The notes under the pieces: generated by a model
What the model was told of the DNA's origin: nothing
Seen by the model: the letters and a program-made list of their open reading frames with translations, nothing else
Databases searched by the model: none
Position numbers and translations under genes: made by a program
NCBI GenBank assembly: GCA_005881495.1
Contig: VBHI01000198.1
Span: 1 to 45,693 of the forward strand
Length of the DNA stretch: 45,693 bases
Origin: Chloroflexota bacterium
GTDB taxonomy: Bacteria; Chloroflexota; Ktedonobacteria; Ktedonobacterales; Ktedonobacteraceae
Reading direction: 5' to 3'
In this document: one piece after another, positions 10,708-44,876 of the stretch
How positions within the stretch are numbered: the stretch's first letter is position 1
Layout: every line of letters starts with the position of its first letter

Positions 10708-10777
10708 GCCGAATGGGGGACTCGAACCCCAATCTGGTGCCTCAGAAACACCGGCCCTACCACTGAACGACACTCTA
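10708..10777 (-). tRNA. degenerate tRNA-Gln(CTG)-like sequence
   Basis: Read on the minus strand, a D-arm GTTCAGTGGTAGGGC is followed by a complete anticodon arm (GGTGT, loop TTCTGAG, GCACC) with anticodon CTG at 10743-10745. The T-loop TTCGAGT has a four-pair stem of G-C. The acceptor ends, however, pair poorly (about five of seven, one a wobble) and the outer T-stem pair is mismatched. It may be a decayed tRNA or an unusual tRNA from a tRNA array. No encoded CCA is seen. Confidence 0.5.
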
Positions 10778-10797: not shown

Positions 10798-10868
10798 TGC
10801 TCTGTGCGAGAATCGAACTCGCTTTGTTTCCTTGAAGGGGGTTTAGCCTGCCACTAGCTAAACAGAGC
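10798..10868 (-). tRNA. tRNA-like sequence with broken anticodon stem
   Basis: The acceptor stem GCTCTGT/ACAGAGC pairs fully and the T-arm GCGAG-TTCGATT-CTCGC is perfect, with A as discriminator. The D-arm can pair through GTTTAGC/GCTAAAC. The 22 bases in between do not form a normal anticodon stem. The loop could be read as TTC (Glu) or TCA depending on register. It is tandem with the Gln-like sequence, 20 bases upstream of it on the same strand. Length is right for a tRNA, so this looks like a decayed or atypical tRNA. Confidence 0.45.
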
Positions 10869-41936: not shown

Positions 41937-42067
41937 TCTTTTTCTCCTTCAATAAATACTGTGTGGGACGTGGGAGCGCCTTCGATGCGAGATGTCGTCC
42001 CATTTCCATACTAATACCACGCCCGCTCTAATGGAGGCAATAGAGCTCCATCGCTCTTATCTTCATA

Positions 42068-42101
42068 TAAATGTTTGAATTCAAACGTTTACAAACATTT
42101 A
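42068..42101. promoter_or_regulatory. nested palindrome, possible operator
   Basis: GTTTGAATTCAAAC (42073-42086) is a perfect 14-base palindrome, inside the larger inverted repeat TAAATGTTTG/CAAACATTTA (42068-42077, 42092-42101). It lies 20 bases before the lysine promoter and upstream of the divergent reductase gene; the shape suits a TetR-like dimer. Confidence 0.6.
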
Positions 42102-42121
42102 TAGGAAATTTGGAAAAATCC

Positions 42122-42151
42122 TTGACAATGCAGGTAGATACATGCTATAAG
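42122..42151 (+). promoter_or_regulatory. sigma-70 promoter of the lysine operon
   Basis: TTGACA (42122-42127), 18 bases, TATAAG (42146-42151). Transcription would begin just before the first T-box leader. Confidence 0.8.
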
Positions 42152-42182
42152 TTAACTATCAGATTTACAACTTCATAAAATA

Positions 42183-42464
42183 GAAGCGTCGAAGGGTCGA
42201 GTAACAGTTGCCTGTTGCGTCCAGAGAGTGGGCGGTTGGTGGAAAGCCCATATGTCAATGCGCTGTGAAAAAAAGCCTGGAGCTGCGAGAAGAAATCGCG
42301 TCATGCGAGAGTAGAACTTGGCCGGATGCCCCCGTTACCGGGCTGGAGTATGTCAGTACTCGGCGAGGTTGCTGCCGTGAGGCAGCAACGAATGAAGGTG
42401 GTACCACGAGAGCAGTGTTTCACGCTCTTTGTCCTTCTCTGAACGAAGGATGAAGGGCTTTTTT
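42183..42464 (+). promoter_or_regulatory. T-box leader 1, lysine specifier
   Basis: Stem I features: the 5' loop CGAGTA, CCAGAGAG, then TGGGC-GGTTGGTGGAAA-GCCCA. The specifier side reads GAAAAAAA (42267-42274), so the codon is AAA, Lys. The T-box proper is GAATGAAGGTGGTACCACG near 42390-42409, with TGGT to pair with the uncharged tRNA end (discriminator A). It is followed by an intrinsic terminator. Uncharged tRNA-Lys should favour the antiterminator and read-through. Confidence 0.88.
42424..42464 (+). terminator. T-box 1 attenuator terminator
   Basis: GCTCTTTGTCCTTC pairs with GAAGGATGAAGGGC (several wobble pairs), followed by six T. Part of the left arm overlaps the antiterminator region. 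Confidence 0.85.
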
Positions 42465-42513
42465 ATTTGCCCTTCGTAGCTTCGCACTAGCGCAACGAAA
42501 AACTTCATAGCAC

Positions 42514-42796
42514 AAAAGCATCGAAAGGACGAGTAGCGGTTCCTGGTTACATCCAGAGAGCGGGCGATTGGTGGAAAGCTCGTATGTTAACCAACCGCGA
42601 AAAAAATCCTGGAGCTGCGAGAAGAAATCGCGTCATGCGAGAGTAGAACTTGGCCGGATGCCCCCGTTACCGGGCTGGAGTATGTCAGTACTCGACGAGG
42701 TTGCTGTCGTGAGGCAGCAACGAATGAAGGTGGTACCACGAGAGCAGTGTTTCACGCTCATCGTCCTTCCCTGAGCGAAGGACGATGAGCGTTTTT
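42514..42796 (+). promoter_or_regulatory. T-box leader 2, lysine specifier
   Basis: A second leader 332 bases downstream of the first. Stem I pairs AGGA/TCCT, GCGGTT/AACCGC, TGGTTA/TAACCA and CGGGC/GCTCG; the specifier side again reads GAAAAAAA (42599-42606), codon AAA. The T-box GAATGAAGGTGGTACCACG lies near 42721-42740. Stem III and antiterminator are almost identical to copy 1, while stem I differs with compensating changes. Confidence 0.88.
42755..42796 (+). terminator. T-box 2 attenuator terminator
   Basis: CGCTCATCGTCCTTC pairs perfectly with GAAGGACGATGAGCG, seven-base loop, then five T. It is stronger than terminator 1. Confidence 0.88.
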
Positions 42797-42838
42797 GTTT
42801 GTCAAGCATCATGTAGTCGAAAAGGAGGAACCCAACAA

Positions 42839-43000
42839 ATGACACACTGTCCAGAATGTGAAGCCGAGATTACCGTGCGAGATCTCCTGGTTGGGGAGAT
42901 CACCTACTGTCCTGATTGTAACGCGGAACTGGAAGTACTACGCCTGGAACCGCCCAGCGTGGCGCTGGCACCGCAGATTGAAGAAGATTGGGGAGAGTGA
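42839..43000 (+). CDS. lysW: LysW amino-group carrier protein
   Basis: 53 residues, too short for many gene finders. Two zinc-binding pairs, CPEC at 4-7 and CPDC at 24-27, and the C-terminal EDWGE whose last Glu takes the amino-acid substrate through its gamma-carboxyl. In the LysW pathway the carrier protects the alpha-amino group of alpha-aminoadipate during lysine synthesis. AAGGAGG is ten bases before the ATG. It is the first gene after the T-box leaders and ends four bases before lysX. Confidence 0.93.
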
Positions 43001-43004
43001 CACG

Positions 43005-43868
43005 ATGCGCCTGGCTATTCTTACATCACGCATCCGCGTGGAAGAGAAACTATTGATCGATGCTCTAAGACAGAGGGCAATTGCATTTGACATCGTCGAT
43101 GATGGAGAATTGCTATTTGATCTGTCAAACCCTGATGAGCGATGGCGTGAATATGATGCCGTCCTCTGCCGCAGCCTGAGCCAATCGCGTGGGTTAGCAG
43201 TGCTCAATATATTGGAGCATTGGGGCATACGTGTGTATAACCCGGCGGCGGTGACTGCACTGTGTAACGATAAGTTGCTCACGACACTGGCGCTGTTCCG
43301 TGCAGGCATCCCGACTCCGCATACATTGTTAGCCTTTGATTCCCAGGTAGCCATTCGCGGTATGGAGATGCTGAGTTATCCGGTCGTCCTTAAGCCAACG
43401 ACCGGGTCGTGGGGACGCTTGGTGGCGCGCATTAATGACCGTGATGCAGCAGAAGCGGTGCTCGAACACCGGGAGACGCTTGGCTCCTATCAGCAGCATA
43501 TCCACTACATACAGGAGCATATCGCCAAGCCGCAGCGTGATATTCGCGCTTTTGTCGTCGGTGAGCGTACCATATGTGCGATCTACCGCACCAGCGAACA
43601 CTGGGTCACGAACACCGCTCGTGGCGCGGTTGCTAGCAATTGTCCGGTCACTCCTGAGCTTGATAGCTTGTGTGTGCGTGCTGCGCAGGCAGTTGGCGGG
43701 GGCATCCTGGCAATCGACGTGCTGGAAGACGCACAACGCGGCCTGCTGGTCAATGAAATCAATGCCACGATGGAGTTCCGCAATAGCATTGCTCCAACAG
43801 GCGTTGATATACCCAGTGTGATGCTTGATTACGTACTGAGTGCCATGAAGGAGGAGGCTGTAAGATGA
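43005..43868 (+). CDS. lysX: LysW--alpha-aminoadipate ligase
   Basis: 287 residues, ATP-grasp fold of the RimK/LysX family. Visible are [19 protein letters not shown] in the central domain, [10 protein letters not shown], and [12 protein letters not shown] near the C-terminus. It joins alpha-aminoadipate (and in some species glutamate) to the LysW tail. The lysine T-boxes and EDWGE LysW favour aminoadipate, but dual use for arginine cannot be excluded. The ATG at 43005 lies after GGGAGAG; the frame upstream overlaps lysW and is not used. Overlaps lysY by four bases (ATGA). Confidence 0.92.
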
Positions 43869-44876
43869 ATCGCCTGCGTGTTGCTATCATCGGCAGCTCT
43901 GGCTATACAGGCGGGGAACTGGTGCGGCTCCTACTCTTCCACCCGCGGGTTGAGTTGACGCAGGTTGCGTCCAGCAGTCATGCCGGGCATTACTTGCATG
44001 GCGTGCATCCGAATTTGCGCAAACTCAGTTCACTGCGCTTCTGCCATCCCAATGACCTGACGTCATGTGACGTACTCTTTCTTTGCCAGCCCCACGGTGT
44101 ATCCTCCAGGGAGATTGAACACTACTGGGCAATTGCGCCACGCGTCATCGACCTTTCAGCCGATTTCAGATTGCGCTCTGCTGGACTGTACGAACGATGG
44201 TATGGTGAGCCTCATTGTGCGTCCCATCTTCTGGAGGATGCTGTCTATGGCCTGCCTGAACTTCACCGCGCGGAACTGCCGGACGCGACTCTTGTAAGTG
44301 GCACCGGGTGTATGGCAACCGCGGCCATCCTGGGATTGGCTCCACTCTACCGGGCAGGTCTCGTGGATGGTGCACTTCCTCTCGTGGTATACTGCCGAAC
44401 TCATACAGGAGCTTGGTCGAGTCTCTGGTGGGGAGCTTCATCAGCATGTCGCTTTCTCTGCAACGGCAGTCGATATCGTGCGCGGTGTGCTTGTTACTGC
44501 TCATTCCTTTTTGAATGAGCGTGTGGATGAGCGAACATTGTGGCGGCTCTATCGTGAAGCCTATCAACACGAGCCTTTCATCCGGCTGATCAAAGAACGC
44601 AGTGGTGTTTACCGGTATCCCGAACCGAAGATTTTGGCGGGAAGCAACTATTGCGATATCGGCTTTGAACTCGACCCTATTCAGCAGAGGGTAGGGGCGG
44701 ATGGAGGGAAGCGTCTGGGAGACACTTCGAGGGAGGAAGGGAGGCGCGTAGTGATCATCGCTGCCCTGGACAACCTGCTGAAAGGCGCAGCCGGAAATGC
44801 TGTACAAGCTCTCAATTGCGTGTACGGTTGGGACGAGTCGTTGGGATTGACCTTTCCTGGTTTGCATCCCGTATAG
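43865..44876 (+). pseudogene. lysY: LysY (ArgC-type reductase), interrupted by deletion and frameshift
   Basis: The N-terminal part, frame of 43865, reads VAIIGSSGYTGGELVRLLL (NADP-binding), VIDLSADFRL, and SGTGCMATA with the active-site Cys, as far as VDGALPLVV near 44390. The C-terminal part then continues in another frame as TAELIQELGRV through FIRLIKERSGVYRYPEP, SNYCDIGFEL and DNLLKGAAGNAVQALN to FPGLHPV. About 35 residues expected between them (the ArgC/LysY stretch with SAGG..SPASHHPE..PTGHRH) are absent. Both parts otherwise look intact, so the break is recent or a sequence error. The intact enzyme would reduce LysW-aminoadipyl phosphate to the semialdehyde. Confidence 0.8.

What the first reader, a model, noticed from the sequence alone, without database searches (positions are those of the whole stretch)
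42183..42796. Two tandem T-box leaders with AAA (Lys) specifiers control a LysW-type lysine operon
Both leaders carry their own T-box, antiterminator and strong terminator, and both have seven A in the specifier side, so any in-frame reading is AAA except at the edges. They are 332 bases apart; stem III and antiterminator are almost identical, while stem I differs by paired changes. The genes below make lysine through the LysW carrier. Two serial switches should give lower leak and a steeper response. Lysine T-boxes are known for other lysine genes; control of lysW-lysX by a tandem pair seems little described. I cannot search literature here.
Basis: partly seen in the sequence, partly recalled or inferred. 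Interest (0 to 1): 0.85.

Follow-up and report, generated by a model that had tools for sequence, protein, structure and literature searches.

The report
Paired lysine tRNA switches in series
In front of a soil-type bacterium's lysine-making genes sit two complete RNA switches, one after the other, each shaped to read empty lysine tRNA; most of its relatives with these genes carry the same pair, which makes it a good natural case for asking what doubling such a switch achieves.

Summary
Confirmed. Two complete T-box leaders (RF00230; 86.9 and 102.9 bits) lie 332 nt apart at 42180-42439 and 42512-42771. Each has its own antiterminator and intrinsic terminator. They precede lysW-lysX-lysY-lysZ in a contig whose nearest relatives are Ktedonobacterales (Chloroflexota). 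In the frame GAAN|NNN|R, supported by other T-boxes of relatives, both copies read AAA (Lys), and both bulges (UGGU) match A73, found in all 33 tRNA-Lys strings recovered from relatives. Of 47 genomes of the order 28 have LysX; 24 of these have enough upstream sequence, 22 carry the pair (two RF00230 hits each), and the two most distant carry one. Of 58 LysX loci elsewhere in the phylum 8 have one T-box and none two. Stem I sorts mainly by position, so the duplication looks old; the switching body was homogenised by gene conversion in at least two lineages, this one included. In 7 of 23 pairs the upstream copy carries UGGC, which mismatches A73; the downstream copy never does. Tandem T-boxes and lysine T-boxes are known kinds. 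I found no description of the pair at a LysW operon in the papers searched; two key T-box surveys were not held. Steeper response and lower leak remain inference.

The parts
42122..42151 (+). candidate sigma-70-type promoter, TTGACA - 18 nt - TATAAG, upstream of copy 1
   Evidence: read by eye, letters checked; the consensus scan did not list it and listed instead one site at 42152-42181, against 0.8 expected in shuffles
42180..42439 (+). T-box leader copy 1 (upstream)
   Evidence: RF00230, 86.9 bits, E 2.4e-19, model 1-219; below the gathering score of 93
42271..42273 (+). specifier AAA (Lys) of copy 1, in frame GAAA|AAA|A
   Evidence: frame supported by other T-boxes of relatives
42399..42405 (+). 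T-box bulge UGGUACC of copy 1
   Evidence: U can pair with A73 of tRNA-Lys
42424..42464 (+). intrinsic terminator of copy 1 with T run
   Evidence: 14 pairs, computed -22.0 kcal/mol
42276..42427 (+). gene-conversion tract in copy 1 (152 nt, 2 differences from copy 2 at 42608-42759)
   Evidence: alignment, count; tree
42512..42771 (+). T-box leader copy 2 (downstream)
   Evidence: RF00230, 102.9 bits, E 1.8e-23, model 1-219
42603..42605 (+). specifier AAA (Lys) of copy 2, in frame GAAA|AAA|A
42731..42737 (+). T-box bulge UGGUACC of copy 2
42754..42796 (+). intrinsic terminator of copy 2 with T run
   Evidence: 16 pairs, computed -30.4 kcal/mol
42839..43000 (+). lysW, amino-group carrier protein
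   Evidence: TIGR01206 56 bits, cut-off 53.2; PF21344
43005..43868 (+). lysX, LysW-aminoadipate ligase
   Evidence: TIGR02144 338.5 bits
43865..44876 (+). lysY (argC-like), interrupted: a 107-nt stretch present in two relatives is absent near 44388 and the frame shifts
   Evidence: TIGR01850 on both pieces; comparison with L001 and L002
45015..45693 (+). lysZ, LysW-aminoadipate kinase (runs off the window)
   Evidence: NF010659 286.9 bits

Best explanation
The leader holds two complete transcription-terminating T-box riboswitches in series, both specific for tRNA-Lys, in one transcript that starts upstream of copy 1 and runs into lysWXYZ. When tRNA-Lys is charged, each terminator folds and RNA polymerase stops at copy 1 or, if it leaks through, at copy 2. 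When tRNA-Lys is uncharged, its anticodon pairs with the AAA specifier and its ACCA end with the UGGU bulge of each copy, the antiterminator forms, and polymerase passes both. Shown by sequence: structure, specifiers, bulges, terminators, gene content, and conservation in relatives. Inferred: tRNA binding, one transcript, series (AND-like) behaviour, and the resulting lower leak and steeper response. The duplication is probably old in the order; gene conversion keeps the two bodies alike in some lineages while stem I stays mostly distinct.
For: RF00230 full-length hits for both copies. A terminator for each. Specifier frame supported by candidates such as ATC, printed in 7 of 30 other T-box loci of relatives, and by relatives' GAATAAGACC, where AAG is the Lys reading. 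A73 in 33 of 33 ARAGORN tRNA-Lys strings, matching UGGU. In 28 genomes the pattern searches show one tRNA-Lys(UUU) and one tRNA-Lys(CUU) in 26; CUU was not found in G001 nor UUU in G007, and one 3-mismatch match in G013 was not examined. LysW-pathway genes downstream. The pair is present in 22 of 24 eligible genomes of the order, each with two RF00230 hits (8, 14), with stem I covariation. Read by eye in the cut listing, T-boxes lie under 600 nt apart only at lysW.
Against: No expression, binding or read-through data. Copy 1 is below Rfam's gathering score. The terminator and promoter scans do not exceed shuffles clearly, and the single-sequence minimum-energy folds show the terminators but not a canonical stem I. 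Of four pairs taken for the lower stem I helix one is mostly not a standard pair. The window's lysY is interrupted, so this operon may be impaired or misassembled. The pair is not universal in the order: 2 of 24 eligible genomes have one T-box and 19 of 47 have no LysX match. G001's only visible copy has a copy-1-like stem I and a copy-2-like terminator at the contig start: a collapsed repeat or a real single hybrid. In 7 of 23 pairs the upstream bulge is UGGC, so equal sensing by both copies cannot be general.
Confidence: 0.86

Rival explanations
1. Only one copy does the regulating. The other is a passenger of an old duplication, kept alike by gene conversion, with little effect of its own.
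For: Duplicates with high body identity can persist through conversion alone. The upstream copy in 7 of 23 pairs has a bulge mismatched to A73. G016 and G017 do with one copy. G001 shows one hybrid copy at a contig start. In G009 the downstream terminator loop carries an insert of about 110 nt.
Against: Stem I pairing covaries across both copies, and every copy of the 22 related pairs has a specifier that I could read as Lys and a terminator stem with a T run.
Confidence: 0.12
2. The copies have different set points. One (often the upstream copy, with UGGC) responds weakly to uncharged tRNA-Lys and acts mainly as a fixed attenuator or high-threshold gate, the other as the fine sensor.
For: UGGC in 7 of 23 upstream and 0 of 23 downstream copies, against A73 in all tRNA-Lys strings seen. 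Among 30 other T-box loci of these genomes, the strongest matches, 29 have UGGU and one UGGC, beside a TCC (Ser) candidate specifier. Stem I stays position-specific in 22 of 22 pairs compared.
Against: In the window itself both bulges are UGGU and both specifiers AAA, so nothing here predicts different set points except stem I sequence and terminator strength (-22.0 against -30.4 kcal/mol). How much one mismatch at N matters was not tested.
Confidence: 0.2
3. The leaders respond to tRNA-Asn as well as tRNA-Lys, as the Bacillus cereus lysK T-box was reported to do.
For: Asn and Lys share a codon box; Foy et al. 2010 (PMC2916919, passages) report induction by uncharged tRNA-Asn. tRNA-Asn has G73 in 5 of 7 strings where it could be read, which would pair with the UGGC bulges of seven relatives. 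At the far edge of copy 2's run of seven A lies AAT.
Against: In the frame used no copy reads AAC or AAU; relatives read AAG or AAA. The window's bulges are UGGU, not UGGC.
Confidence: 0.05

Closest known systems
Tandem T-boxes of Bacillota (trp, ilv-leu, thrS, hom-thr, his transporter operons)
   Same: Two complete T-boxes in series before amino-acid genes; reported in PMC12452182, PMC9413887 and PMC4342826 (passages read); PMC9413887 cites a possible cooperative, sharper response.
   Different: Phylum and target (LysW pathway) differ. PMC12452182 does say that aspartate-family synthesis, lysine included, is enriched for contiguous riboswitches in its survey; the parts of its table that I saw name hom-thrC-thrB, not a lysW operon. 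Body conversion was not described in the passages read.
Bacillus cereus lysK T-box (Foy et al. 2010, PMC2916919)
   Same: tRNA-Lys T-box, shown functional there.
   Different: Controls a class I lysyl-tRNA synthetase, also induced by uncharged tRNA-Asn; no tandem arrangement is mentioned (0 occurrences of the word).
Pseudo-cooperative tandem homologous riboswitches (PMC9481103)
   Same: Two switches for the same ligand, each with its own expression platform; predicted to give a more digital response.
   Different: The passages read treat metabolite riboswitches and pairs of a T-box with another switch; no tRNA-Lys pair was named in them.
Single lysW T-boxes of other Chloroflexota (this study)
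   Same: Readable as Lys, upstream of lysX.
   Different: One T-box only: 8 of 58 loci outside the order, plus G016 and G017 within it.

Membership tests
T-box leader (RF00230) | covariance-model match over the full leader | tested here: met
   both copies 1-219, 86.9 and 102.9 bits; copy 1 below the gathering score
T-box leader (RF00230) | stem I with specifier codon matching a cognate tRNA | tested here: met
   AAA in both; tRNA-Lys(UUU) present in relatives; the window's own genome is not held
T-box leader (RF00230) | UGGN bulge complementary to the tRNA 3' end, N matching the discriminator base | tested here: met
   UGGU in both, A73 in 33 of 33 tRNA-Lys strings of relatives; not met by the upstream copy of 7 relatives
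T-box leader (RF00230) | antiterminator exclusive with an intrinsic terminator | tested here: met
   terminators; antiterminator folds of copy 2 (-15.1) and copy 1 (-13.8 kcal/mol); they share the GUCCUUC strand
T-box leader (RF00230) | read-through raised by uncharged cognate tRNA | not testable with these tools
   needs in vitro transcription or a reporter
Tandem T-box | two complete leaders, each with its own terminator, before one operon | tested here: met
   also 22 of 24 eligible relatives
Tandem T-box | both leaders lie on one transcript | not testable with these tools
   a candidate promoter lies upstream of copy 1 only by eye and by a weak scan match
Lysine riboswitch (L-box, RF00168) | RF00168 match in the leader | tested here: not met
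   only RF00230 matches at E up to 0.1 in 42050-42900
LysW-type lysine operon | lysW, lysX and lysZ together | tested here: met
LysW-type lysine operon | homocitrate synthase and the later LysJ/LysK steps in the operon | tested here: inconclusive
   seen in relative L001; the window ends within lysZ

The most novel reading that the evidence does not exclude
A pair of tRNA-Lys switches kept across most of an order, in which the two copies are held apart at the tRNA-reading stem I while their switching bodies are repeatedly copied onto each other, and in which the upstream copy has in part of the order lost the match to the discriminator base: a two-threshold gate on lysine synthesis rather than a simple doubled switch.
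Probability: 0.22. Interest if true: 0.68.

Novelty: new member of a known kind. Interest (0 to 1): 0.45.

Why it matters
A 2020 review states that the mode of action of tandem T-boxes is unknown (PMC7583486, passage). This pair offers natural variants for a direct test: same amino acid, same operon, some pairs with 98-99% identical bodies, some with an upstream bulge mismatched to the tRNA, and relatives with one T-box. It also shows that T-boxes for lysine, listed with Glu and Gln as the least common in TBDB (PMC7778990, passage), are regular at lysW in one bacterial order, mostly with an AAG specifier, whereas TBDB reports the 3'-A specifier as favoured for two-codon amino acids.

Tried and rejected
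Idea that the two copies read different tRNA-Lys isoacceptors: rejected for the window (both AAA) and not seen in relatives; G009 copy 2 is ambiguous.

Idea that the AAG-to-AAA specifier change in the window's clade follows a change of tRNA-Lys(UUU) type: dropped, because other genomes with a tRNA-Lys(UUU) unlike the common type keep AAG.

Idea that UGGC in the upstream copy means tRNA-Asn sensing: not supported, as no copy reads AAC or AAU in the frame used.

Idea that G009 copy 2 has lost its terminator (one search found no T run within the 140 nt searched): withdrawn; a stem partner and a T run lie beyond an insert of about 110 nt, whose core is single-copy in that genome.

Stem IA covariation: the first count paired the wrong segment; the recount gives standard pairs in 45, 38 and 32 of 45 sequences for three pairs and 19 of 45 for the fourth. 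Not used as support.

A strict single origin of stem I by position: the tree needs 4 label changes and a single copy-1 clade has p-AU 0.023, so the old-duplication reading needs some conversion in stem I too (G011/G012, G041-G046) or extra duplications.

A claim that the pair is fixed in the order was withdrawn on checking: the 47-genome set is the order itself, and it includes the two single-copy genomes and 19 without a LysX match. I lowered the interest score from 0.47 to 0.45 for this.

Full report
WHAT IS THERE. Two T-box leaders lie head to tail upstream of lysW. A relaxed Rfam scan gives RF00230 over the full model for both: 42180-42439 (86.9 bits, E 2.4e-19) and 42512-42771 (102.9 bits, E 1.8e-23). 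At the gathering score of 93 only copy 2 appears. Each has a terminator-like hairpin, 42424-42458 and 42754-42792, computed at -22.0 and -30.4 kcal/mol; two such sites were found against 0.9 (sd 1.1) in shuffles. The alternative antiterminators fold at -13.8 (copy 1) and -15.1 (copy 2). Whole leaders fold with z -2.23 and -3.34; the minimum-energy folds show the terminators but not a canonical stem I. A promoter-like TTGACA-18-TATAAG at 42122-42151 precedes copy 1; I read it by eye and the scan did not list it. No other Rfam family matched 42050-42900 at E up to 0.1, so a lysine riboswitch is not indicated.

THE GENES. lysW (TIGR01206), lysX (TIGR02144), an argC-like lysY in two pieces, and lysZ (NF010659) follow. 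Compared with L001 and L002, the window's lysY lacks 107 nt near 44388 and shifts frame; whether this is real or an assembly fault cannot be told here. In L001 the operon goes on with an 816-aa reading frame holding LysJ-like and LysK-like domains, then a homocitrate synthase, so there it is the LysW lysine route. No whole genome is held for the window. Its LysX is 91% identical to L001 and L002; L002 is labelled Ktedonobacteraceae, L001 only Chloroflexi. Ktedonosporobacter (G009's genus), Dictyobacter and Thermosporothrix lie in Ktedonobacterales.

SPECIFIER AND DISCRIMINATOR. Among 30 other T-box loci of these relatives a regular expression printed a specifier candidate in 16, seven of them ATC, in the frame GAAN|NNN|R; the downstream genes were not checked. 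In that frame both window copies read AAA. Relatives read AAG in most copies and AAA in the window's clade (G001, G002, G035); G009 copy 2 is ambiguous (my reading). All are Lys. All 33 tRNA-Lys strings printed by ARAGORN (some differ only at the printed end) have A73; tRNA-Asn has G73 in 5 of 7 strings, two being unread. UGGU in both window copies fits A73.

HOW WIDESPREAD. The class set and the order set around G009 are the same 47 genomes, 28 of them with LysX at E up to 1e-40. Four lie too near a contig start (491, 1, 515 and 362 nt upstream). Of the other 24, 22 carry two T-boxes by motif, all confirmed by two RF00230 matches: 8, 14. Their LysX is 77-91% identical to the window's. The two others, G016 and G017 (64% and 61%), have one. 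G001, one of the four set aside, shows one copy at the contig start with a stem I like copy 1 of L002 (95% against 80%) and a 3' end like copy 2 (96% against 88%): a collapsed repeat or a real single hybrid. Elsewhere in the phylum 148 of 400 genomes drawn have LysX, the order's own included. I fetched 60 upstream stretches chosen mostly from the top of that ranking, G016 and G017 among them, one only 470 nt long: 10 of 60 (8 of the 58 outside the order) have one RF00230 match and none has two. I could read all 10 as Lys. In the 15 genomes the listed T-boxes lie under 600 nt apart only at lysW, by eye; that listing was cut, so weaker pairs elsewhere are not excluded.

EVOLUTION OF THE PAIR. 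In 22 of 22 genomes compared (21 relatives and the window; G036 dropped) stem I of each copy is closer to a same-position copy of another genome than to its own partner. The body (stem II to bulge) behaves otherwise: in the window, G002 and G014 the two copies of one genome are closer to each other (0.98, 0.98, 0.99) than to any same-position copy elsewhere (at best 0.90, 0.90, 0.87); G038 and G039 are mixed and the other 17 do not show it. In the body tree the window's copies are sisters (98/93) and so are G014's (100/100), G002's are not; copy 1 held as one clade is rejected (p-AU 6.5e-6). In the window the converted tract is 42276-42427, with 2 differences in 152 nt. Against a simple story, the stem I tree also needs 4 label changes and mildly rejects one copy-1 clade (p-AU 0.023).

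A DIFFERENCE BETWEEN COPIES. Seven of 23 upstream copies (G003, G004, G005, G006, G008, G010, G036) carry UGGC; 0 of 23 downstream copies do. UGGC does not pair with A73. Of the 30 other T-box loci only one has UGGC, beside a TCC candidate; that tRNA-Ser has G73 is recalled, not checked. This suggests, but does not show, another set point of the upstream switch in those species. The window has UGGU in both.

LITERATURE. I read passages, not whole texts. Tandem T-boxes at trp, ilv-leu, thrS, hom-thr and his-transporter genes are reported in PMC12452182, PMC9413887 and PMC4342826; PMC2873960 notes one in Staphylococcus aureus. PMC12452182 also says that aspartate-family synthesis, lysine included, is enriched for contiguous riboswitches, without naming lysA or lysC in its main text. 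PMC2916919 describes a functional tRNA-Lys T-box at lysK, PMC9481103 the pseudo-cooperative logic of tandem switches. PMC7583486 calls the action of tandem T-boxes unknown; PMC7778990 lists Lys among the least common specifiers. In PMC5584792 'lysW' is an NhaC-type antiporter, another gene; PMC3766115 held no lysW. Searches pairing T-box with LysW, aminoadipate, Ktedonobacter, Chloroflexi, Roseiflexus, tRNA-Lys, or tandem with lysine, and two neighbouring searches listed no title on this pair; for I saw 20 of 51 rows, for 20 of 94. Vitreschak et al. 2008 and Gutierrez-Preciado et al. 2009, the likeliest places for an earlier mention, are not held.

VERDICT. It is a new member of a known kind, notable for its spread in one order, for conversion of the switching body, and for the mismatch of some upstream copies.

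Noticed in passing
window 43865-44876: lysY (argC-like) is interrupted: 107 nt present in L001 and L002 are absent near 44388 and the frame shifts; real or an assembly fault is open.
   Followed up: partly
L001 1-258: The only visible T-box of G001, at the contig start, has a copy-1-like stem I and a copy-2-like 3' end: a collapsed repeat or a real deletion between the two copies.
   Followed up: partly
L001 3436-5886: A single 816-aa reading frame holds both a LysJ-type aminotransferase and a LysK-type hydrolase domain, followed by homocitrate synthase.
   Followed up: partly
L112 (G009), upstream of lysX: The terminator loop of the downstream T-box carries an insert of about 110 nt with an inverted repeat; its core is single-copy in that genome.
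   Followed up: partly
window 10798-10868, minus strand: Rfam calls a tRNA (34.2 bits) next to tRNA-Gln at 10708-10777, but ARAGORN does not.
   Followed up: no
L130, L142, L150, L153, L164, L167, L176, L178: Single T-boxes upstream of lysX in other Chloroflexota, all readable as Lys, mostly AAG.
   Followed up: partly
G001-G015: These 15 genomes carry 7 to 21 RF00230 matches each at E up to 0.001, so T-boxes are common in these Ktedonobacteria.
   Followed up: no
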